44,667 nt of DNA, taken from Thermoanaerobaculia bacterium (GTDB taxonomy: Bacteria > Acidobacteriota > Thermoanaerobaculia > Multivoradales > Multivoraceae). Location of the stretch: assembly GCA_022823665.1 (NCBI GenBank), contig JAJEHN010000002.1, positions 1 to 44,667 of the forward strand, given 5' to 3'. Made by a program: the position numbers and the translations under genes. Positions 28,544-44,127 of the stretch are shown here, piece by piece (within the stretch, counting starts at the first letter, position 1; every line of letters begins with the position of its first letter). The notes below the pieces were generated by a model that was not told the origin of the DNA, did not search any database, and saw only the letters and a program-made list of their open reading frames with translations.

Positions 28544-30484
28544 TCAGGCCTCCATCCTATGCCGGGGCCGCAGCACCCGCCGCCGATCCCCCTCCCGGCG
28601 CGTCAACCTCTGGCGGTCCAGGTGCTCCAGCAGGGGAATCGCCCACTTCCGGGTGAGGCCGAAGCGGTCCTTGAACTCGGCGACGGTGAAGGTGTCCCAG
28701 CCGGTGGCGAGCAGGTCGGCCTGGAAGCGCTCCAGGGAACTCGCTGCCAGCACGAGGCCGTTCGGAAGCCGGGCCAGCTTGCCGCGCTCGACCAGGTAGC
28801 GGAGAACGCCGTCGAAGACCTGGGGCTTGGCGCCGACGGTGCGGCAGAGTTCCTCGGGCGAGCCGGGGGTGAGCCCCTGCGCCTCGAACCCCTGGACGAT
28901 GTCCTGGGCGAGCCTGGACTCGGCGCCGGTGAGTTCGCTGGCGCGGCCCGGGAGAGTCACGAGTTCGCCGTCCGTGACGATCGCTTCATCCTTGCCGCCG
29001 CGGCTCGACCAGTCCAGGTAGGCCGGGGCGAGGTCGGCGGCGCGCGCGCCCAGCAGCCGGCGGACCAGTTCGGCCTTCGGCATGCCGCGCGACAGGCGGT
29101 CGGCGGCGAAGTGGGCCTCGACCAGACGCCGGGCACGCCGGGTCACGCGACGAACCGTGGTCGCGGTGACGAAGCGGCCGCCGGCGCCCGCCTCGAGCAG
29201 CAGGCCCGCCTGCGCGGCGCCGTTGAGCACCTCCCGGGCGTCGGCGGGGACGACGCCCAGACGCAGGGCGAGTTCGGTCACAGCCAGACCGGCCTCGCGG
29301 CTGCGGGCGGCCCACTGCACGGCGGCGGCCTGCCGGTCGCCGGAGCCGAGCGCGTCGATCGTCGGTCCGAGAGCCTTGCCTCGAGGACGCCTCCAGGCCG
29401 GGTCGAGCACGTCGCCGCCGCCGAGCGTCGTCTGGGGCGAGGGCCTGCGGATGACGAAGCGGTCGCCGCGAACCGCCACCAGAGGCTCGTCGAGCCGGAT
29501 CTCGGCCACCGCTTCCTGGCCGGGCATGAGCCGGGCGGCGTCGAGCGGCCGCAGCTTGCCGATCCGCTGCGCGGCGTTCACGTGAAGCCGCACCGGGCTG
29601 CTGCCGTCGAGCGGTTCGGGCGCCGTGGCGAGCAGCCGGCACCGCACGAGCAGGGAAGTCGTGGCGCGGTAGACGCCGGGCGCGGTCAGTTCGTGGCCGC
29701 GGGCGACCTGCTCGAGGTCGACGCCGACGAGCTGGAGCGACGTGCGCTCGCCGGCCTCCGCCTGTCGGCGGGGGTCGCCGTGGACCTCGATGCTGCGCAC
29801 GCGGGCACGGCCGGCGGCGGGCAGGATATCCAGCTCGTCGCCGACGCTCACGGTGCCCCGGGCGAGGGTGCCGGTGACCAGCACGCCGAGTCCCCGCAGG
29901 TGAAAGGCCCGGTCGATCGGCAGCCGGGCGGGAAGGCGGCGATAACGGTCGATCGGGGCCGCCGACCTGGCGAGTTCCACCAGGGCCGCACGAAGCTGTT
30001 CCAGACCCTCGCCGGTCTGGGCCGACACCGGCAGGATCGGCGCGCCGGCGAACGGGGTTTCGGCAAGCGCCTCCTCGAGCTCCAGCTCGGCAAGCTCCAC
30101 GAGGTCGGCCGACACGAGGTCCGTCTTGGAGAGCACCGCCAGGCCGGCGGGGATCCGGAGCAGCGAACAGATCGCGAGGTGCTCGAGGGTCTGCGGCATG
30201 ACTCCCTCGTCGGCGGCCACGACCAGCACCATCATCTGAATGCCGCCGAGCCCTGCGAGGGCGTTGTGGACGAACCGTTCGTGGCCGGGCACGTCGACGA
30301 AGCCGATCTGCCAGCCGTCCTCGACCATCGAGGCGAAGCCGAGGTCGATCGTGATGCCGCGCTGCTTCTCCTCTTCCCAGCGGTCGCAGTCGACCCCGGT
30401 CAGGGCCTGGACGAGCCGCGTCTTGCCGTGATCGACGTGACCCGCGGTGCCGACGACGAACCGGTTGGCGACCACCCCGTTCAC
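28544..30484 (-). CDS. selB: Selenocysteine-specific elongation factor SelB
   Basis: This 646-residue GTPase delivers Sec-tRNA(Sec) to UGA codons with a SECIS element. The G domain has [33 protein letters not shown] and SKTDLV. Domains II-III run to about residue 340 ([47 protein letters not shown]). The C-terminal ~270 residues hold winged-helix repeats that bind SECIS RNA (last one [37 protein letters not shown]). The SELB versus EF-Tu distinction rests on the GGG.VLDP region and the winged helices. The GTG start overlaps the ntrX stop (GTGA). No selA, selD or tRNA(Sec) gene is visible in the window, and no Sec-type in-frame UGA was recognised. Confidence 0.93.
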
Positions 30485-31848
30485 GAACCGCGTTCGGGGT
30501 CGATGCCGTAGGCCTGGAGCTTGCGATACAGGTGGCGGCGGTCGATTCCGAGGTCCCTGGCGGCCTGGGAGACGTTGCCGCCGGCGGCGCCGAGCCGGCG
30601 CTCGATGTACAGCCGCTCGAAGGTCTCGCGGGCCTCCTTGAGCGAGGCGTAGTCGTTGCCCACCTGGGCGATCGCGTCCGCGCCGCGTACCCGCGGCGGC
30701 AGGTCCGCTTCCATGACCACGTCGCCGGGCGCCATGATCATCAGGCGTTCGCTCAGGTTGCGGAGTTCCCGCACGTTTCCCGGCCACGAGTAGGCGACCA
30801 GCCGTTCGAGCGCCTGGGGGTCGACCGTCTTCGGGCGGCGGCCGGCCTCGGCGGCGAAGCGTTCGAGGAAGTGGTCGATCAGGGCCGGGATGTCCTCGCG
30901 CCGGTCGCGAAGGGCCGGCACGTGGAGCGGAATGACGGCGAGCCGGAAGTAGAGGTCCTCGCGGAACCGGCCGGCGGGGAGTTCACCCTCTTCCAGGTTC
31001 TTGTTCGTCGCCGCCAGCACCCGCACGTCGACCTCGATCGGCTCGGAGCCTCCCACCCGCTCGAACCGCTGCTCCTCCAGCACGCGCAGCACCTTGGCCT
31101 GGGTGTTCAGCGACATGTCGGCGATCTCGTCCAGGAACAGGGTGCCTCCGTCGGCCTGTTCGAACCGTCCGCGGCGGTTTTCCGAGGCTCCGGTGAAGGC
31201 GCCCTTGATGTGCCCGAAGAGTTCGCTCTCGATCAGTTCCTCCGGGATCGCGGCGCAGTTCACTTCGACGAAGGCGCGGCTCCTGCGCTGGGAGAGGCCG
31301 TGGACGCGCCGCGCGACGAGCTCCTTGCCCGTGCCGTTCTCGCCGGTGATCAGGATCCGGCTCTCGGCGCGAGCCGCGAGCTTCAACTCGTCCTTCAGTT
31401 GCCGCATCGACGGTGAGTCGCCGATGAGCTGCCGCTCGGGGTCGAGCCGGTTCGACAGTTCCCGCACCTGGCGTTCGAGTCGGTTCCGCTCCAGGGCGTT
31501 CTCGACCGACACGACGACCCGGTTGAGCGCCAGCGGCTTCTCCAGGAAGTCGTGCGCGCCGACACGCATCGCCTTGACCGCCGTATCGATGTTCCCGTGG
31601 CCGGAGATGACGATGACGGGCGTCTGGAAGTCGCCCTCCCGGAGCTCCTCCAGGATCTCCAGACCGTCGCGGTCGGGCAGCCAGACGTCGAGCAGGACGA
31701 GATCGAACTCGTCGCTCGCCATCAGCGCCTGGCCGCTCACCGCGTCCGCCGCCGCCGTCACCGAGTGGCCCTCGTCCTCGAGGATGTCCCGAAGCGTCTG
31801 GCGGATCCCGGCCTCGTCGTCGACGATCAGAATGCGCGCCTTGCTCAT
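30481..31848 (-). CDS. ntrX: Sigma-54-dependent response regulator, NtrX type
   Basis: This 455-residue protein has a receiver domain (about 1-120; ILIVDDEAGIR, LVLLDVWLPDRDG with the phospho-acceptor Asp, VISGHGNIDTA, DFLEKP) and an AAA+ domain (about 140-380) with Walker A GENGTGKE, an intact GHIKGAFTGA sigma-54 loop, GGTLFLDEIADM, and YSWPGNVRELRN. The Fis-type DNA-binding helix-turn-helix is at the C-terminus (GNVSQAARDLGIDRRHLYRK). It lies 24 bases downstream of its partner kinase gene ntrY. Known NtrYX systems act in nitrogen or envelope/redox responses; which one applies here is not shown. Confidence 0.94.
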   Translation of the reverse strand: MSKARILIVDDEAGIRQTLRDILEDEGHSVTAAADAVSGQALMASDEFDLVLLDVWLPDRDGLEILEELREGDFQTPVIVISGHGNIDTAVKAMRVGAHDFLEKPLALNRVVVSVENALERNRLERQVRELSNRLDPERQLIGDSPSMRQLKDELKLAARAESRILITGENGTGKELVARRVHGLSQRRSRAFVEVNCAAIPEELIESELFGHIKGAFTGASENRRGRFEQADGGTLFLDEIADMSLNTQAKVLRVLEEQRFERVGGSEPIEVDVRVLAATNKNLEEGELPAGRFREDLYFRLAVIPLHVPALRDRREDIPALIDHFLERFAAEAGRRPKTVDPQALERLVAYSWPGNVRELRNLSERLMIMAPGDVVMEADLPPRVRGADAIAQVGNDYASLKEARETFERLYIERRLGAAGGNVSQAARDLGIDRRHLYRKLQAYGIDPERGS

Positions 31849-31872
31849 CGTTGGATGCCGGTGAGCGCGGTT

Positions 31873-34146
31873 CTACCGCGGCAGCTCGGACTGGGGCAAC
31901 CCGGACTGGGGCAATTCAATGGTGAAGGTCGTGCCGTGGGGCTCGTTGTCCTCGACCCGGATCGAACCGTTGTGGTCGCTGACGATGCGCTGGACGATGG
32001 CGAGGCCCAGCCCCGAACCCCGTCCCTTGGTCGAAAAGTACGGCAGGAAGAGCTTCTCGCGGGCCCCCTTCGGCACGCCGCTGCCGGTGTCCCTGACGGA
32101 GAGGTCGAAGGTCCCGTTGCTGCGGCCGGCCCGGACCGTCACCTGACCGGGCGGGTTGGTGGCGGCGATGGCGTTGTCCAGCAGGTTGACCAGGGCGGAG
32201 CGCATCTGGTCGGCGTCGAGCTTGGCGTGGAGACCCTCTTCGCCGGCCTCGATGCGCGCCTCGACCTCGACTCCGGGTTTGAGCTCGCGGTACAGGTCGA
32301 CCGTTTCGCTGATCAGCTTCGCTATGTCGACATCGCGGGGCTGAGGGCGCCGCATGCGGGCGTAGCGCGCGAACTGGTCCACGAGGTTCTGCATGTTGCC
32401 GACCTCGCGGACGACGATCTGCGCTCCCTCCTCGACCGCGACGCCGAGACTCGCGTCGTTGCTCTGCGCCTTGCGCAGCAGTCGCTCCGCGGCGAGCTTG
32501 ATCGGAGTCAGCGGGTTCTTGATCTCGTGCGCGATCCGGCGCGCGGCCTCCGTCCAGGTAGCGGCCTTCTGGGCGTCGAGGAGCGCGGTCAGATCCTCGA
32601 TCACGAGGACGTGGCCGAGCAACTCGAAGCCGCCGCTGCCGTCCGGGGCGCGCAGCGGGCTGGTCTTGACCTCCAGCGTCTTCCAGTCGTCCCTGCCGCC
32701 GAGGCTGACCTCGCGACGGGCCGGGGCCGCCCGGGAGCGGCGCGGCCTGGTCGTCTTCCGGTCCGTCGAATCCGGCAGGTCGGCGAACACGGCCTCGACG
32801 CCCTTGTCGGGGAGCAGTTCGCTCAGCGCTTCGGGCGGCGCGCCGGCGAGCGAGACGTGTTCCGGCAGTCCGAGCATCTCCATCGCGGCGCGGTTGCAGG
32901 TCAGGATGCGGCCGTCCCGGTCGAGCGAGAGCACGCCGGCCGGCCCGCTCTCGAGCACCGCTTCGATGCGGGCGCGCTCGGCGTCCAGGCGTCGGTTCGT
33001 CGCCACCAGGTCGCGGTTCGATTCCTGCAGAGCGTCGGTCATCCGGTTGAAGGAGTCGACCAGGACCTGGACCTCGTCGTCGGCGGCCGCCTCGACCCGG
33101 TGTTCCAGGTCGCCGCCGGCGATGCGCCGGGTGCCGTCCGCCAGCGCTTCGATCGGACCGGTGACCCGTCCGGCCAGATAGAGACCGACCCAGCACGAGA
33201 CGAGCAGGATGCACAGGGTCACGGTGAGAAACAGAAGCCAGTACGCGGCCCGGATCTCGTCGCGTTGCGCGTGCAGTTGCCGCCGGGACTGGTAGGCGGC
33301 GATCAGGATCTCCGTGTTGCCCGCGAGTTCGGCATCGAGCAGCCTGCCGGCGACGGCCACCGTGGTCTCGGCGCCGCCTTCCCGCGCCGCCGCTGCCAGG
33401 ATCAGTCGCTCCTCGCTGCCCGCCACTTCGCCGATGGCCCGGGCGGCGCCGGTGCGGACGGCTTCGAGCAGCATGCCGCGGGTCGGCTCGGGTACCTCGG
33501 AAAGAGCCTGCGGGTTGACCGTGGCCTGGAGAAAGGTGGTGTCCCGGTAGACCGCCAGGTAGTCGAGGTCGGCCTCGGAACGGGCGTCGCCGAGCGCCCC
33601 CAGCAACCTGCCGCGGCCGCGCGGGCTGTCGAGGTCCAGGCTCCCGGTGTCGGCGAGAAAGCGCTCGGCGTCGCGAAGCAGCTCGTCCTGCTGCGTCGAG
33701 GTCAGGGCCTGGGAGACCTGGTTCGCCGGCTCCAGCAGATCGTCGATGTCGGTCCGGAACATGCGGTCGATCGAGCCCTGGAGCAGTTCCGTGGCGTAGG
33801 CGAAGAGGACGAGTCCGGGGATCAGCGACAGGCCGATGTAGGTGAGGATCAGCTTGGTGCGGAACTTGGCGCCCAGACGCTGGCGCCGGCGCTCGATCCA
33901 CAGCTTGGTCAGGTTGCGGACGAGCACGAAGACGACGACCAGGATCAGCACGACATTCAGATTGCGCAGCGCGAACAGCAGGATGCTGTTGTTCAGCACC
34001 GTGGGGTCGATCTCGCGACCGCGCTGGAGCGCGTAGTAGCCCGCCGTCGGCACGGCGAGGGAGAGCGCCAGGAGCCAGACCAGGAAGCGGTTGGTCTTGA
34101 TGAGTTCCCGCAGGGGCGGGCGGGTCGCGGTCAGGCGCCGGATCAC
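31873..34146 (-). CDS. ntrY: Membrane sensor histidine kinase, NtrY type
   Basis: This 757-residue protein has about four N-terminal TM segments (about 20-35, 50-75, 95-115, 305-330) flanking an extracytoplasmic sensor region. A HAMP domain follows (about 330-385; RVTGPIEALADGTRRIAGGD), then a PAS domain (about 400-500; ARIEAVLESGPAGVLSLDRDG), HisKA with the phospho-His motif RRIAHEIKNPLTPIKLAAER, and HATPase_c with NLLDNAIAAT and GRGSGLGLAIVQRI. The GTG start overlaps the stop of the DUF4390 gene (GTGA). It should phosphorylate the neighbouring NtrX. Confidence 0.93.
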   Translation of the reverse strand: MIRRLTATRPPLRELIKTNRFLVWLLALSLAVPTAGYYALQRGREIDPTVLNNSILLFALRNLNVVLILVVVFVLVRNLTKLWIERRRQRLGAKFRTKLILTYIGLSLIPGLVLFAYATELLQGSIDRMFRTDIDDLLEPANQVSQALTSTQQDELLRDAERFLADTGSLDLDSPRGRGRLLGALGDARSEADLDYLAVYRDTTFLQATVNPQALSEVPEPTRGMLLEAVRTGAARAIGEVAGSEERLILAAAAREGGAETTVAVAGRLLDAELAGNTEILIAAYQSRRQLHAQRDEIRAAYWLLFLTVTLCILLVSCWVGLYLAGRVTGPIEALADGTRRIAGGDLEHRVEAAADDEVQVLVDSFNRMTDALQESNRDLVATNRRLDAERARIEAVLESGPAGVLSLDRDGRILTCNRAAMEMLGLPEHVSLAGAPPEALSELLPDKGVEAVFADLPDSTDRKTTRPRRSRAAPARREVSLGGRDDWKTLEVKTSPLRAPDGSGGFELLGHVLVIEDLTALLDAQKAATWTEAARRIAHEIKNPLTPIKLAAERLLRKAQSNDASLGVAVEEGAQIVVREVGNMQNLVDQFARYARMRRPQPRDVDIAKLISETVDLYRELKPGVEVEARIEAGEEGLHAKLDADQMRSALVNLLDNAIAATNPPGQVTVRAGRSNGTFDLSVRDTGSGVPKGAREKLFLPYFSTKGRGSGLGLAIVQRIVSDHNGSIRVEDNEPHGTTFTIELPQSGLPQSELPR

Positions 34147-36557: not shown

Positions 36558-36561
<4 letters not shown>
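36040..36561 (+). CDS. smpB: SsrA (tmRNA)-binding protein
   Basis: This 173-residue protein is required for tmRNA-mediated ribosome rescue. Landmarks: [96 protein letters not shown] and the C-terminal tail [18 protein letters not shown] that enters the mRNA channel. The tail after this is longer than usual by about 20 residues ([15 protein letters not shown]). The tmRNA gene itself is not in the window. The stop overlaps the uvrA GTG start (GTGA). Confidence 0.96.
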
Positions 36562-39419
<2,858 letters not shown>

Positions 39420-39421
39420 GC

Positions 39422-40930
39422 GTGGCCGACCGCGGATCCTCCCCCTCCCGGAAGGCGTCAACGGACTTTGCCGGCCGCCGCCAACGGCTGCAGCTCGAGA
39501 CGCTCTACGACCTGGTCGTGGCGCTCCACTCCCACGAATCCGAGCAGGGACTGCTGGACGACCTCCTGCAGCGTCTCTGCACGATCGTCGACCCGGCGGC
39601 TGCCGCGACCGTCACCCGCGACCGGTTCGGGGTCGCGCGGTCGGCGTCCACGGTCGGCTTCGGCAGCGATTCCCCGGCAGCCGAGGCATTGCTTGCCGGA
39701 CCCTTGTGGGACGATCTCCTGGCCCGGGACGACCTCCTGGCGCGCAGCGGCGGCTCGCTGGCCGGTCGAGAGTTCCAGTCCCTGCTGGCGGCGCCGCTCA
39801 AGTCCCGTGATGCCGTGCTGGGCTTCGTCGCCGTCCTCGACAAGGAGGTCCGGGGCAAGGGCCAACCGGGCTTCAGTGACGGCGACCGGAGGTTTCTCCG
39901 GTCCGTCGCGGCGCTGGCCGGAGTGGCCCTGGACGGTCTGCGCCAGGTGGAGCGGCTGGTCGTCTCGCGGGAACGGCTGGCGGAGGAGAACAAGCTGCTC
40001 AAGGAGCGCCTCGACGACCTGGCGGAGGTCGGCGGCAGGCGGATCGTGGCCCATGCGCCGGCGATGCGCCGCATCCTGGAGGTGATCGACCGGGTCGCGC
40101 CGCGGAGCGTTGGCGTCCTGCTTCGCGGCGAGAGCGGCACGGGCAAGGAACTCATGGCGGCCTTTCTCCACCAGCGATCCGAGCGGACCGGCCCGCTGGT
40201 GGCGGTGAACTGCGCCGCGCTTCCGGAGAGCCTGCTGGAGAGCGAACTGTTCGGCATCGAGGGCGGCGTGGCCACCGGCGTGAGGGCGCGCCTCGGCCGC
40301 TTCGAACTGGCCGAGGGGGGCACCCTCTTCCTCGACGAGGTCGCCGATCTCGATGTCGCGCTGCAGGTCAAGCTGCTGCGCGCGCTCCAGGAGCGCGAGA
40401 TCGTGCGGGTCGGGGGTCAGCGGGCGATCGCCGTCGACGCCCGGGTCGTTGCCGCGACCCACCAGCCGCTGGAACGGCTGGTCGAGGAGGGCCGGTTCCG
40501 CGAGGATCTGTACTACCGCCTCAAGGGAATCAGCGTCGAGCTGCCGCCGTTGCGGGAGCGACGGCGGGACATCCCGCACCTGATCCGCCACTTCGCCGAA
40601 CGGTTCTGCGAGCGGGAATCGGTCGAGTTGCCGCAGTTCGACCGGACGGCGCTGAACTTCCTGCTGGCGCACGACTATCCCGGCAATGTGCGGGAACTGC
40701 AGAACATCGTGGAGGGCGCGGTCTCCCTGGCCGACGGCGTCGTCGACGTGGCCCTGATCCAGTCGCTGATGGGCGGCGCGGTCGGCCTTCAGAGCCCGGA
40801 GCCGCTCGACCTCGAGACGGTCAAGCGGCGTCACGTACGCCGGGTCATCGGAATGACGGGGGGCAACAAGAGCGCCGCCGCGAGGCTTCTCGGCGTCAAC
40901 AGGCGCACCCTGACGCGCGGAGGGTACTGA
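39422..40930 (+). CDS. GAF-AAA+ sigma-54-type transcriptional activator with altered GAFTGA loop
   Basis: This 502-residue protein has an N-terminal GAF-like sensor (about 25-180; LETLYDLVVALHSHES, FQSLLAAPLKSRDAVLGFVAVLD), a short coiled coil and an AAA+ domain (about 215-440). The AAA+ domain has Walker A GESGTGKELMA, ELFGIEGGVATGV, GGTLFLDEVADLD, VAATHQPLE, FREDLYYRLKGISVELPPLR and DYPGNVRELQN. A Fis-type helix-turn-helix is at the very C-terminus (GGNKSAAARLLGVNRRTLTR). The sigma-54-contacting loop reads GVATGV (282-287) instead of GAFTGA, losing the aromatic residue. The HTH ends about five residues earlier than usual. There is no receiver domain, so the input is probably a ligand or redox signal through GAF. 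The start is GTG, two bases after uvrA. Confidence 0.9.
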   Translation: MADRGSSPSRKASTDFAGRRQRLQLETLYDLVVALHSHESEQGLLDDLLQRLCTIVDPAAAATVTRDRFGVARSASTVGFGSDSPAAEALLAGPLWDDLLARDDLLARSGGSLAGREFQSLLAAPLKSRDAVLGFVAVLDKEVRGKGQPGFSDGDRRFLRSVAALAGVALDGLRQVERLVVSRERLAEENKLLKERLDDLAEVGGRRIVAHAPAMRRILEVIDRVAPRSVGVLLRGESGTGKELMAAFLHQRSERTGPLVAVNCAALPESLLESELFGIEGGVATGVRARLGRFELAEGGTLFLDEVADLDVALQVKLLRALQEREIVRVGGQRAIAVDARVVAATHQPLERLVEEGRFREDLYYRLKGISVELPPLRERRRDIPHLIRHFAERFCERESVELPQFDRTALNFLLAHDYPGNVRELQNIVEGAVSLADGVVDVALIQSLMGGAVGLQSPEPLDLETVKRRHVRRVIGMTGGNKSAAARLLGVNRRTLTRGGY

Positions 40931-40967
40931 TCGATCCGCTGTCGGTGCGGCATCCCGCGATGGCAAT

Positions 40968-40982
40968 GGGTCATTTTGGCCC
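40968..40982. promoter_or_regulatory. Palindromic operator-like site, copy 1
   Basis: GGGTCATTTTGGCCC fits the shared pattern GGGnCA-N3-TGnCCC, extended by flanking AT/AT into ATGGG...CCCAT. Its centre is about 227 bp before the predicted start of the sigma-54 transcript, a normal distance for an upstream activating sequence. Confidence 0.55.
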
Positions 40983-40987
40983 ATCAT

Positions 40988-41002
40988 AGGACATATTGTC
41001 CC
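40988..41002. promoter_or_regulatory. Palindromic operator-like site, copy 2
   Basis: AGGACATATTGTCCC has a perfect GGACA-TAT-TGTCC core. The centre is 20 bp from copy 1, about two helical turns, so both sites face the same side of the DNA. Confidence 0.58.
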
Positions 41003-41069
41003 TAGTGCATGTGAGGCGGGCGTAACGTCTCACCAGAGCCGGCCCAAGCCCGAGTGGCGCGACTCGGTC

Positions 41070-41084
41070 GGGACAAATTGCCCC
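41070..41084. promoter_or_regulatory. Palindromic operator-like site, copy 3
   Basis: GGGACAAATTGCCCC has the same arms and AT-rich centre as copies 1 and 2, centred 82 bp downstream of copy 2 and about 100 bp upstream of the -24 element. Between the copies lie other small palindromes (41050-41067, CCGAGT...ACTCGG; 41123-41145, AAACCC...GGGTTT). No gene is seen in 40931-41223. Confidence 0.55.
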
Positions 41085-41175
41085 GAATCGACCATCCGGT
41101 CGCGACGGTGCCGCTCGTCGTCAAACCCGCGTGAAAGCTGGGTTTACGGACGGTTTGCCCTCGTATCTCCCCGGC

Positions 41176-41191
41176 TGGCAGAGGACTTGCT
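41176..41191 (+). promoter_or_regulatory. Sigma-54 (-24/-12) promoter
   Basis: TGGCAGAGGACTTGCT matches the consensus TGGCAC-N5-TTGCW with GG and GC separated by exactly ten bases. Transcription would start near 41202, giving a short leader with GGGGAGG at 41211-41217, six bases before the ATG at 41224. Position and orientation fit control of the four genes to 43926. Confidence 0.78.
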
Positions 41192-41223
41192 CTCTACCAG
41201 GGTCACCAACGGGGAGGTCGAAC

Positions 41224-41412
41224 ATGATGGTAGGGTCGCCGTTCAGTTTTTTGGACCGTGGGGGCGTCACCGCGCCGGTTTCGTGGGCGGGGAGTCTCTC
41301 CGCCGGTGTGTTCTGGTCGTCCGTGGTGGTCGCCAGCTTTCTCTGGTTTCTGCTGAACGACCGGATCCAGCCCGTGGTGATCTACTGTCTCAAGCTCTTT
41401 CTTGTCGCCTAG
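41224..41412 (+). CDS. Small membrane protein heading the partner-switch operon
   Basis: This 62-residue protein (MMVGSPFSFLDRGG...) has one clear TM helix (about 24-43; GVFWSSVVVASFLWFLLND) and a hydrophobic C-terminal stretch (IQPVVIYCLKLFLVA) that may form a second. It is preceded at six bases by a strong GGGGAGG and at 33 bases by the sigma-54 promoter, which is the main support that it is real. I recognise no family. Being first in the operon, it might anchor or sense for the RsbW/V/U-like proteins downstream; that is inference. The ATG at 41227 is an equally good start. Confidence 0.65.
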   Translation: MMVGSPFSFLDRGGVTAPVSWAGSLSAGVFWSSVVVASFLWFLLNDRIQPVVIYCLKLFLVA

Positions 41413-41448
41413 GATCCCGGCCGCTGGGACGCCGATCGCCTACCCCCG

Positions 41449-41892
41449 ATGTCTGAGCTCGGAGTTCTTGAAGAAACCCACCTGACTTTCAGGCTCGCGC
41501 CTGAAATGGAACTGGAGGTGCGGGCCTGCGCCTGCGAGATGGCGAAGTCCATCCGGATGAGCACGGACAAGGTCGAGGAAGTGGGCATGGCGGTGGTAGA
41601 GGCGTGCATCAACGCGATCGAACACAGCCGGGCCGCCGACGGCCAGCTTCATCTCGGGCTTGCGGTACTGGGTTCGGCCGAGGCGGACGAGCCGCAGGTG
41701 CTCCGGATCACGATTCAGGATCAGGGAGTCGGCTTCGACTGTTCGAAGCTCGTGCCGCCCCGGATCGAGGACAACCTGAAGTCGATCCGGAAGCGTGGCT
41801 GGGGGTTGAAGATCATTGAAGGACTGATGGACGAGGTGAACGTGCTCTCGGGCGAGGGCGGCACCTCCGTCGTGATGTTGAAGGTACTCTGA
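41449..41892 (+). CDS. RsbW-type serine kinase / anti-sigma factor (HATPase)
   Basis: This 147-residue GHKL-fold protein begins at an ATG 36 bases after the small membrane protein. ATP-binding motifs: N box EVGMAVVEACINAIEHS, G1 DQGVGFD, G2 RGWGLKIIEGLMDEV and the final GGTSVVMLK. The size and motif set are those of RsbW/SpoIIAB-like kinases, which bind a sigma factor or other client and phosphorylate the STAS antagonist. The segment between G1 and G2 is short, as in single-domain members. The STAS and PP2C proteins encoded next are its expected substrate and the opposing phosphatase. Confidence 0.9.
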   Translation: MSELGVLEETHLTFRLAPEMELEVRACACEMAKSIRMSTDKVEEVGMAVVEACINAIEHSRAADGQLHLGLAVLGSAEADEPQVLRITIQDQGVGFDCSKLVPPRIEDNLKSIRKRGWGLKIIEGLMDEVNVLSGEGGTSVVMLKVL

Positions 41893-41926
41893 CGCTCTTG
41901 CTGAGCGAGGAAGTCTGGTTGGTTCC

Positions 41927-42286
41927 ATGACCGAGGGTCTGAAGTTGAAGGTGGAGCGCCGCGACGGTCTGGCGGTGATCTACACGGACGGCTACATCAA
42001 CAATCAGGGCGGCGAGGAGATCGCGGAGGCGGCGTACGGCCTGCTGGACGAGGGCTTCAGGACGCTGCTGCTGAACCTCGCCGGGACGAAGATCGTCAAC
42101 TCGATCGGCATCTCCATCCTGATCGAGATCATCGAGAAGATGATCGAAGTGGAGGGCCGGCTTTCCTTCTGCGATCTCACGCCGACGATCGAGAAGACCT
42201 TCCACATCATGGGCCTGGCGCAGTACGCCAGCATCTTTCCGGACGAACAGGCGGCGGTGACCGGACTTCAGGCCGGGGCCTCGTGA
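41927..42286 (+). CDS. RsbV-type STAS anti-anti-sigma protein
   Basis: This 119-residue single STAS domain protein has GLAVIYTDGYINNQGG, LLLNLAGTKIVNSIGISILI and GRLSFCDLTPTIEKTFHIMG. The phosphorylatable serine is most likely Ser59 in VNSIG, the usual position in the loop before helix 2. Its unphosphorylated form would bind the RsbW-type kinase and free the kinase's client. The stop overlaps the GTG start of the phosphatase gene (GTGA). Confidence 0.9.
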   Translation: MTEGLKLKVERRDGLAVIYTDGYINNQGGEEIAEAAYGLLDEGFRTLLLNLAGTKIVNSIGISILIEIIEKMIEVEGRLSFCDLTPTIEKTFHIMGLAQYASIFPDEQAAVTGLQAGAS

Positions 42287-43926
42287 CTTCGCCGGCCGCC
42301 GGTGCCGCTCAGGCGTCGGAGTCGACCTCGGCGGCTGGAGCGGGTCTCGGAGCCGAACTCTGGCGGCTGGCGGCGGCGGCGGAAACCGCGGAGTGGGAGA
42401 GCGGCGCGGCGCAGACCCGGCTGGTCGGGCACTGGTGCCGGACGCAGGGGCTGGCCGGCGCCCAGATCTACCGCCGCGACGGGGGTCCCGTGGCGTCGTG
42501 GGGCGTGCTCGGCACTCGCGAACGGAGCCTGGAGCACGGCCTGATCCTCTACTACGCGGCCGTGGACGATGCGACTCGCGATGACGGCGCCGGCGGCGGA
42601 CAGGAAAGAACGCCGGAGGAGCACGACCTCGCCGGAGTGCTGGCCATCGGCCTCAGGCTGCGGGAACTGGCCGACGAGCTGAAGGACCGGAAGTTCCAGG
42701 ACAACTACAACGTCGTCACGCTGGAGGCGGTCTACGACGTGGGGCTGGCGATCGCTTCGACGCTGAACCTGGATGAACTGACCGAGGAGATCCTGCTGCG
42801 CGCGGTTTCGCTCCTGGACGCCCGGCGCGGCGCCTTCTACCTGCTGGACGACGAAGGCCGCCTCGCGCTCGCCGGCACGATCGGCGGCGGCGCCCGCGAG
42901 GCGATCGAAGCGCCGCCGGCCGGTTTCGACGAAGCCGGCATCGAAGCGGTAGCGGCGGGCGTGATGCCGGCCGCGGAACACTCGCTCGCGGTCCCCATCG
43001 AAGGCGACGGGGGCAGCGGCAGCGTCGGCCTGCTCGTGGTCGCGGACAAGGAGAGCCGGACCGGAGTCGGCCCGTTCGCCGCGGCCGATCATCGGGCGCT
43101 CTCGCTGTTCGCCAACCAGGCCGCGATCGCGTTGACCAACGCGAAGCTCCATCGGCAGGCGCTCGAGAAGGAGCGCCTCGAGCGCGAGGTGGAGCTCGCC
43201 GCCGAGATCCAGCGCAACATCCTGCCCGCGGAGATGCCGAGCGCGGGCTGCTTCGAGACGGTTGGCTGGAGCCGTCCCTCGCGCCAGGTCGGCGGCGACT
43301 ACTACGGCTCGCTCCGGTTGGCCGGGTCGCGCCGTGGTCTGGTGGTCGCGGACGTCACGGGCAAGGGCATGCCGGCCGCGCTCCTGGTCTCTACCCTGGA
43401 CTCGGCGTTGCGGTTGCTCGTCGACGACTGCCGGCTGGGCGGAGAAGGCGTGGGGGCGGAACTCTCGCCGGACCTCTTCGACCGCCTGAACAAGCACATC
43501 CTCGAGAGCAGCGCCAGCAATTGCTTCATCACCCTGATCCTCGCGGAGATCGATCCGCGAAACCGCGCCGTCCGCTACCTCAATGCGGGACACAACCCGG
43601 GGCTCCTGGTGCGCGGGGACGGCGAAGTGACGCCGCTTCCGGCCAGCGGCCTGCCGCTGGGCCTGCTTCCCACCGCGAGCTACCAGGTGGAGCCGCTCGA
43701 GATGGGGCCGGGCGATCTCCTCTGCCTGTACAGCGACGGGATCACGGAGTGCGAGTCCCCGGACGGCGAAGAGTACGGCCAGGAGCGGCTCGAGGACTTC
43801 CTTCGCTCTCGCCGCGAGCGGCCGCTGTCCGAGGTCGTGGACGCGATCGACGCCGACGTGAGGCGCTTCGGGGCCGGCCTTCCCCAGGGCGACGATCAGA
43901 CGGTCGTGCTGATTGGTAGCCGCTGA
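42283..43926 (+). CDS. GAF-PP2C (SpoIIE/RsbU-type) serine phosphatase
   Basis: This 547-residue protein has an N-terminal ~130 residues that I do not recognise (contains VGHWCRTQGLAGAQIYRRDG), a GAF domain (about 155-295; ALEAVYDVGLAIASTLNLDE-like start, SLFANQAAIALTNAKLH end), a short coiled coil and the SpoIIE-type PP2C domain (about 325-547). The metal motifs are intact: VGGDYYGS, VADVTGKGMPAALL, YLNAGHNPGLL, LYSDGITECES and GDDQTVVLIG. It should dephosphorylate the STAS protein encoded upstream in response to a GAF ligand. The start GTG overlaps that gene by four bases. Confidence 0.93.
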   Translation: MTSPAAGAAQASESTSAAGAGLGAELWRLAAAAETAEWESGAAQTRLVGHWCRTQGLAGAQIYRRDGGPVASWGVLGTRERSLEHGLILYYAAVDDATRDDGAGGGQERTPEEHDLAGVLAIGLRLRELADELKDRKFQDNYNVVTLEAVYDVGLAIASTLNLDELTEEILLRAVSLLDARRGAFYLLDDEGRLALAGTIGGGAREAIEAPPAGFDEAGIEAVAAGVMPAAEHSLAVPIEGDGGSGSVGLLVVADKESRTGVGPFAAADHRALSLFANQAAIALTNAKLHRQALEKERLEREVELAAEIQRNILPAEMPSAGCFETVGWSRPSRQVGGDYYGSLRLAGSRRGLVVADVTGKGMPAALLVSTLDSALRLLVDDCRLGGEGVGAELSPDLFDRLNKHILESSASNCFITLILAEIDPRNRAVRYLNAGHNPGLLVRGDGEVTPLPASGLPLGLLPTASYQVEPLEMGPGDLLCLYSDGITECESPDGEEYGQERLEDFLRSRRERPLSEVVDAIDADVRRFGAGLPQGDDQTVVLIGSR

Positions 43927-44066: not shown

Positions 44067-44084
44067 GGGGTTCGCGAGAACCCC
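44067..44084 (+). other. Leader hairpin with GNRA-type loop
   Basis: GGGGTTC-GCGA-GAACCCC is a perfect 7-bp stem closed by a GCGA tetraloop (a GNRA loop) in the leader. No T tract follows. It may stabilise the mRNA or control access to the first of the repeated start sites. Confidence 0.5.
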
Positions 44085-44127
44085 GGAATGCAAGGGGTCC
44101 CCGGAATGCAAGGGGTCCCCGGAATGA
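44081..44127 (+). repeat. 18-bp tandem repeat carrying repeated ribosome sites and ATG codons
   Basis: CCCCGGAATGCAAGGGGT occurs twice (44081-44098, 44099-44116), and a third partial copy (44117-44127) holds the gene start. Because 18 is a multiple of three, the ATGs at 44088, 44106 and 44124 are all in the reading frame of the following gene. The ATGs at 44106 and 44124 each have AAGGGG 8-9 bases upstream. Confidence 0.7.

What the first reader, a model, noticed from the sequence alone, without database searches (positions are those of the whole stretch)
39422..43926. A sigma-54-controlled partner-switching circuit with its own activator
A GAF-AAA+ activator gene is followed by repeated operator-like palindromes, a -24/-12 promoter and an operon of small membrane protein, RsbW-type kinase, STAS protein and GAF-PP2C phosphatase. 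Partner-switch modules usually sit beside the sigma factor or client they control. Here none is encoded, and the module itself appears to be switched on by sigma-54. Two GAF inputs (activator and phosphatase) would give transcriptional and post-translational control of one switch.
Basis: partly seen in the sequence, partly recalled or inferred. Interest (0 to 1): 0.8.

Follow-up and report, generated by a model that had tools for sequence, protein, structure and literature searches.

The report
Sigma-54 switch operon, odd activator
In most sampled members of one class of acidobacteria, a kinase-STAS-phosphatase gene set sits beside its own activator gene and behind a conserved match to a sigma-54 promoter, yet the activator carries a fixed variant of the loop that normally touches sigma-54, so it is likely a working exception to a textbook rule and is predicted to switch the set on.

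Summary
The five genes, three palindromes and a -24/-12 match (41176-41190, predicted start 41202) are there and are conserved well beyond the genus, while the spacer between them is not. GG-N10-GC is kept in 35 of 35 aligned intergenic regions. Of 80 named loci, 69 have enough upstream DNA: 67 carry the activator and 65 the promoter match; the four misses are each accounted for. Published work says only Tyr can replace that Phe in PspF, and surveys discard proteins without GAFTGA; the conserved promoter and enhancer-like sites argue that this one works. In six loci fetched from outside the class, kinase, STAS and PP2C occur without activator or such a promoter, so sigma-54 control looks lineage-specific. 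The first gene is a conserved 50-73-residue, probably membrane, protein of unknown function. The client is unknown; no SigB/SigF-type sigma was found. Two-level control of a STAS switch is already known (SypG/SypA/SypE). Nothing was tested at the bench.

The parts
39422..40930 (+). activator gene: GAF domain, AAA+ (Sigma54_activat), Fis-type HTH, 502 aa; starts 2 nt after the preceding ORF (uvrA by sequence, name recalled)
   Evidence: orthologues upstream of the kinase in 52 of 56 relatives' loci
40265..40282 (+). codons of the variant L1 loop GVATGV (residues 282-287), followed by a one-residue deletion relative to GAFTGA proteins
40967..40983 (.). upstream palindrome 1 (TGGGTCATTTTGGCCCA)
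40987..41003 (.). upstream palindrome 2, 20 bp from palindrome 1
41069..41085 (.). upstream palindrome 3, 82 bp from palindrome 2 and 107 bp before the -24 element
41176..41190 (+). -24/-12 element TGGCAGAGGACTTGC (sigma-54 promoter match; predicted +1 at 41202)
41224..41412 (+). small, probably membrane protein, 62 aa, first gene of the predicted operon, preceded by GGAGG; family C-terminal motif WLL..D.IHP..VYLLQLYL
41449..41892 (+). RsbW/SpoIIAB-like serine kinase, 147 aa, N-box (E51, N55) and G-boxes kept (box names recalled)
41927..42286 (+). STAS protein, 119 aa; Ser59 (codon 42101-42103) aligns with the phosphorylated serine of SpoIIAA (which serine is phosphorylated is recalled)
42283..43926 (+). 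GAF + PP2C (SpoIIE-type) phosphatase, 547 aa, aspartates D339, D357, D485, D537 and D538 invariant in A4

Best explanation
The locus carries an activator gene, three conserved palindromes, a conserved match to a sigma-54 promoter and a four-gene set (small protein, kinase, STAS protein, phosphatase), and it likely works as a partner switch that its own GAF-domain activator would turn on through sigma-54 RNA polymerase despite a non-canonical GVATGV contact loop. Shown by sequence and comparison: gene order, domains, three sites with near-fixed spacing in the order, the -24/-12 match, the invariant variant loop, kept catalytic residues in kinase and phosphatase, an invariant candidate phospho-acceptor serine. 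Inferred: the activator binds the palindromes; a ligand on its GAF domain frees the AAA+ ring; the ring remodels the sigma-54 closed complex; one transcript from about 41202 makes all four proteins. The kinase would phosphorylate Ser59 of the STAS protein and so be free to hold an unknown client; the GAF-phosphatase, on its own signal, would dephosphorylate the STAS protein, which captures the kinase and frees the client. The transcriptional layer would set how much switch there is, the GAF-PP2C layer its state. The small protein may tether or sense at the membrane (weakest step).
For: Synteny: activator upstream of kinase in 52 of 56 order/genus loci; of the other four, three start at a contig edge and in one (L071) DNA is inserted. 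Named loci: 69 of 80 have >2.7 kb upstream; 69 kinase, 67 activator, 65 promoter match, 58 with two or more palindromes and 45 with three or more at PWM >= 9. Order-level alignment (window + 34): GG-N10-GC 35 of 35, TGGC 35, next A 33, TTGC 33; palindromes 1-2 18-20 bp apart in all, 2-3 77-84 bp in all but L049 (115) and L053 (57, no real third site), while the spacer DNA is not conserved. In L071 the palindromes, promoter match and small ORF stayed together although DNA lies inserted on both sides (ORF read by eye). Own genome has one rpoN match. In six loci from outside the class, kinase-STAS-PP2C occur with neither activator nor TGG..GC promoter. The small ORF starts 43-53 nt after the start of the promoter match in 45 of 50 loci.
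Against: The activator breaks the GAFTGA rule: in PspF only Tyr can replace the Phe (PMC2941729, passage citing Zhang 2009; the original is not held); PMC3162934 (passages) treats such losses as sigma-54-independent (TyrR, DhaR, HupR). One class genome (G338, L194) keeps a -24/-12 match 655 bp before the kinase but no activator was matched in that 12.5-kb locus, and its three best activator matches elsewhere all read GAFTGA. The palindrome motif fades in several class-level loci outside the order, and its PWM was built on order members. That the activator binds the palindromes rests on proximity. No client was found: no convincing conserved co-directional gene follows the phosphatase in the 33 loci examined.
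Confidence: 0.72

Rival explanations
1. The 39422 protein has lost sigma-54 contact and acts as an ordinary DNA-binding regulator or repressor at the palindromes (like TyrR), while another GAFTGA activator of the genome drives the -24/-12 promoter.
For: GVATGV plus a one-residue deletion; published loss-of-contact cases (PMC3162934, passages); own genome holds other activators, five of whose loops were readable and read GAFTGA (4) or GSFTGA (1); G338 keeps the promoter match without a matched activator beside it.
Against: The loop is not decaying: 240 of 240 listed database proteins (the best 120 of two capped searches) read GVATGV with the same deletion, and Walker A, Walker B and the arginine-finger region (names recalled) are kept. 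The palindromes lie at enhancer distance (centres -227, -207, -125 from the predicted start), not over the promoter. The six outside-class loci lack both activator and promoter match, so the two tend to come together.
Confidence: 0.18
2. Mixed ring: the GVATGV protein forms hetero-oligomers with a GAFTGA activator, lending GAF sensing and DNA targeting while the partner supplies the contact loops.
For: Mixed activator pairs are known (HrpR/HrpS, recalled). PMC12054792, seen only in the search listing, concerns subunit specialization in such rings.
Against: With the window activator as query no second activator gene was matched beside the locus in the 56 and 20 loci examined; no partner identified.
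Confidence: 0.07
3. The -24/-12 match and palindromes are not regulatory and the genes are expressed by read-through or from a sigma-70 promoter.
For: In the window the activator gene starts 2 nt after the preceding ORF. The strict -24/-12 pattern is no commoner in the genome than its reversed control. No scan for sigma-70 promoters was run.
Against: 65 of 69 intergenic regions against a background of 49 in 1,377,256 strand-positions, with near-fixed spacing to the small ORF.
Confidence: 0.03

Closest known systems
SypG / SypA / SypE of Vibrio fischeri (PMC3610818 passages; PMC10804989 passages)
   Same: A sigma-54-dependent activator turns on operons of which one is led by a STAS protein gene (sypA), and a kinase/phosphatase protein controls that STAS protein after translation through a serine: two layers on one switch, with SypA's way of acting unknown.
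   Different: SypG is a response regulator, not a GAF protein; kinase and phosphatase are one protein (SypE) with a receiver domain; the locus builds a polysaccharide; SypG's loop was not compared here.
DVUA0100 of Desulfovibrio vulgaris (PMC4641369, passages)
   Same: The one print mention of a GVATGV activator found (53 papers hold GVATGV or GAFTGA, 40 listed, this the only listed one with GVATGV); also co-located with sigma-54 promoters and judged functional by regulon prediction.
   Different: Predicted to control type III secretion operons, not a partner switch; no loop deletion mentioned in the passages read. Its sequence was not obtained, so kinship was not tested.
RsbU/RsbV/RsbW and SpoIIE/SpoIIAA/SpoIIAB
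   Same: Kinase profile matches RsbW and SpoIIAB structures, STAS profile SpoIIAA; phosphatase model matches SpoIIE and Rv1364c.
   Different: No SigB/SigF-type sigma found in the genome; sigma-54-type promoter match; extra small protein.
SiaA of Pseudomonas aeruginosa
   Same: Best structural match of the phosphatase domain is SiaA (6k4e).
   Different: The SiaA system's non-sigma client and its transcriptional control are recalled, not tested here.

Membership tests
sigma-54-dependent enhancer-binding proteins | AAA+ Sigma54_activat domain with Walker A and B | tested here: met
   Pfam 202 bits; GESGTGKE and GTLFLDE in A1
sigma-54-dependent enhancer-binding proteins | GAFTGA loop (Phe or Tyr at position 3) | tested here: not met
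   GVATGV in 23 of 23 rows of A1, 50 of 52 order/genus proteins, the other two being partial, 71 of 80 named loci, the rest without a readable loop, 240 of 240 listed proteins, always one residue shorter
sigma-54-dependent enhancer-binding proteins | C-terminal Fis-type HTH | tested here: met
   HTH_8 match
sigma-54-dependent enhancer-binding proteins | acts on a -24/-12 promoter in a genome with rpoN | tested here: inconclusive
   promoter match and rpoN present; action itself untested
RsbW/SpoIIAB partner-switch modules | GHKL serine kinase with N and G boxes | tested here: met
RsbW/SpoIIAB partner-switch modules | STAS protein with phospho-acceptor serine | tested here: met
   S59 invariant in 23 of 23, aligned with the DS motif of SpoIIAA
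RsbW/SpoIIAB partner-switch modules | PP2C phosphatase with metal-binding aspartates | tested here: met
   22 of 22 in A4; fold match
RsbW/SpoIIAB partner-switch modules | cognate SigB/SigF-class sigma as client | tested here: not met
   13 Sigma70_r2 places: two RpoD over the cut-off; nine over the ECF superfamily cut-off and one just under it, none with SigBFG among the listed families; one weak place (L291) not scanned. Genome 96.7% complete, so absence is not absolute
RsbW/SpoIIAB partner-switch modules | phosphorylation and partner exchange | not testable with these tools
   needs biochemistry
Syp-type two-layer switch | receiver-domain activator and fused kinase-REC-PP2C protein | tested here: not met
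   GAF activator, separate kinase and GAF-PP2C; Syp layout from PMC3610818 passages

The most novel reading that the evidence does not exclude
GVATGV with a one-residue-shorter loop marks a functional class of sigma-54 activators that opens promoters without the aromatic contact thought essential; here it is fixed across a bacterial class and dedicated to one target, a partner switch led by a new family of tiny membrane proteins. Genome surveys that filter on GAFTGA have been throwing this class away.
Probability: 0.5. Interest if true: 0.82.

Novelty: new variant of a known kind. Interest (0 to 1): 0.64.

Why it matters
It is a ready natural test of a textbook rule. Activators with Ala where Phe is said to be essential sit next to a conserved sigma-54-type promoter, so one in-vitro transcription assay would show either a second way to open sigma-54 complexes or a sigma-54-independent family member parked at sigma-54 promoters. 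Surveys that require GAFTGA (PMC12316311) or an accepted variant of it (PMC3162934; passages) would likely miss it. It also shows a kinase-STAS-phosphatase set that has sigma-54-type control in one lineage and not in the six outside loci looked at, and an uncharacterised small-protein family (438 database hits; no Pfam domain in any of the 120 listed).

Tried and rejected
Chance or decay of the loop: rejected, since the variant is invariant and tied to a fixed deletion, whereas 31 canonical-type loops read in the same call (24 GAFTGA, 4 GSFTGA, 2 GAFTDA, 1 GAFTSA) all have one residue more. The 240 database proteins are top hits to GVATGV queries, so they show constancy within the group, not its frequency among all activators.

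A frameshift at the short C-terminus (RRTLTRGGY*): rejected, relatives in the order end at the same place (RRTLQRKGF* and the like).

A wider regulon of the activator: the strict palindrome pattern has 27 places in the genome against 22 for the reversed control; of 20 TGGCA-N6-TTGC places, the 19 others have best sites within 450 bp upstream of at most 12.6. A dedicated single target is favoured; places with a laxer promoter were not looked at. A first search with the wrong spacing (N7) was useless.

Client by neighbourhood: 33 loci; a family in 17 of 33 is convergent in the members printed, and a looser cluster spanning 20 of 33 seems to rest on low-complexity ORFs that I did not trust.

Structure: the activator model was poor in the AAA+ part (mean pLDDT 67.5) and was not used; the phosphatase model (81.5) matched SiaA, SpoIIE, RssB and Rv1364c.

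GVATGV beyond acidobacteria: the plasmid search gave nothing usable; one listed protein, P0243, bears a Nitrospirae MAG label, not followed up. PMC3804575 (passages) was read for Sfa2/Sfa3 and says they carry GAFTGA; not used.

The two activator misses: L222 again, and L257, which has only 2.7 kb upstream.
Full report
What is there. The window is all of a 44,667-base contig of a 4.5-Mb MAG, 96.7% complete. The promoter match is TGGCAGAGGACTTGC, 41176-41190; three 17-bp palindromes lie at 40967, 40987 and 41069.

Conservation. The kinase was sought in 60 genomes (own included): 57 have a match at 1.4e-20 or better, three only weak ones (G027, G035, G050). I fetched wider regions for the 56 other than the window's own. 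In 52 of 56 the activator precedes the kinase; L047, L051 and L068 start at a contig edge; in L071 DNA is inserted. I aligned the window with 34 of those 52 intergenic regions, leaving out 16 near-identical genus members and two with long spacers (L070, L072). They show three palindromes (consensus YGNGRCA-WWW-TGYCNCR) at near-fixed spacing and the -24/-12 element; TGGC in 35 of 35, A at the next place in 33, TTGC in 33, GG-N10-GC in 35.

A named scan with the STAS alignment found 98 relatives and kept 80 loci. Many are the same genomes as above, so the counts are not independent. Of the 80, 69 have more than 2.7 kb upstream: kinase 69, activator 67, promoter match 65 (TGGCA form 52), two or more palindromes 58, three or more 45. 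The palindrome PWM was built from order members, so its scores on them are favoured; in class members outside the order the motif fades.

Range. The STAS profile matches 53 of 297 genomes drawn from the phylum at 1e-15: 16 of the order or nearer, 16 of the rest of the class, and 21 elsewhere, several of them weak. The one class genome shown without a match is G249; 224 further rows without a match are not listed, and I take the list to be ordered by kinship. Of 20 loci then fetched, 14 are from the class (two matching class genomes were not fetched): 12 have a readable GVATGV activator, L185 is cut by N, L194 (G338) has none matched; 11 show a clear promoter match within 520 bp of the kinase, L185 a weaker one, L194 one 655 bp away, and L187 none with that pattern, though the same contig (by length; L250) matched the looser pattern. 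Six of the 21 outside-class genomes were fetched: all six have kinase, STAS and PP2C and no activator or TGG..GC match; L192 has one weak AGG..GC candidate.

The loop. Each copy that could be read reads GVATGV: 23 of 23 in A1, 50 of 52 order/genus proteins with the other two partial, 71 of 80 named loci with the rest unreadable or without activator, 240 of 240 proteins listed by two capped database searches; these sets overlap. In the 240 it is followed by two residues before the R-x-G, where the canonical ones have three. The profile alignment to ZraR, NifA and an NtrC-family structure shows the same gap. Of seven strong AAA+ activator hits in the own genome, five others showed a readable loop, four GAFTGA and one GSFTGA; L006 gave none with my pattern. 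In ten genomes chosen as exceptions or outgroups, 30 loci were fetched from a longer, capped list: one GVATGV (G021); the other readable activator loops were GAFTGA, GSFTGA, GAFTDA or GAFTSA; five loci gave no readable loop.

Why this is odd. PMC2941729 (passages) reports that in PspF only Tyr replaces the Phe. PMC12316311 kept only sequences with GAFTGA, and PMC3162934 sorted substitutions into functional and abolishing ones (passages). PMC4641369 (passages) is the one listed paper with GVATGV: DVUA0100, predicted to be functional. I read passages only, no whole paper. My literature searches were made, in an open-licence library; they found no account of this locus.

The switch. Kinase profile matches RsbW and SpoIIAB structures, STAS profile SpoIIAA, the phosphatase model SiaA, SpoIIE, RssB and Rv1364c. 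Key residues and Ser59 are invariant in the alignments. The first gene encodes 50-73 residues in 50 of 56 loci; in three of the other six one was seen further upstream (L070, L072; L071). 33 of the 50 reach a Kyte-Doolittle mean of 1.6 over 19 residues, so 'membrane protein' is likely, not proven. The database holds 438 relatives, called only 'hypothetical' where a name is shown among the 120 listed.

Client. Of 13 Sigma70_r2 places in the genome, two are RpoD, nine are over the ECF superfamily cut-off, one just under it and one weak place was not scanned; there is one rpoN match; no SigB/SigF-type was identified. The client stays open.

Verdict. A conserved sigma-54-type arrangement around a partner switch is well supported by comparison; its activator is formally not a canonical sigma-54 activator (defining loop not met) but most likely works like one.

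Noticed in passing
L147 (own genome C38:136753-136767, minus strand): A TGGCATTACTCTTGC element lies about 139 bp before an ORF upstream of and running toward the rpoN match (C38:135075-135551, minus); it looks like rpoN itself, suggesting autoregulation (ORF read by eye).
   Followed up: partly
L131, L134, L136, L143, L144, L145, L148: Other TGGCA-N6-TTGC places in the own genome precede ORFs that look by eye like envelope proteins (TonB-type receptors, VWFA-like, HtrA-like, porin-like); no family search was run.
   Followed up: no
window 44081-44126: Perfect 18-bp tandem repeat, 2.6 copies, just after the operon.
   Followed up: no
window 30481-34146, minus strand: A second activator with GAFTGA (L005) beside a sensor kinase-like ORF, NtrX/NtrY-like by eye.
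   Followed up: partly
L184 6691-9556: In one class member two ORFs, one looking by eye like a serine/threonine protein kinase on the other strand, lie between the STAS and PP2C genes.
   Followed up: no
L188, L189: Outside the class, the kinase-STAS pair is followed by two PP2C-matching ORFs, one of 852 or 877 residues.
   Followed up: no
L072 2018-2720: The kinase gene appears duplicated in tandem in one relative.
   Followed up: no
window 36558-39419 and relatives: The ORF before the activator (uvrA by sequence, recalled) also precedes it in many relatives.
   Followed up: partly
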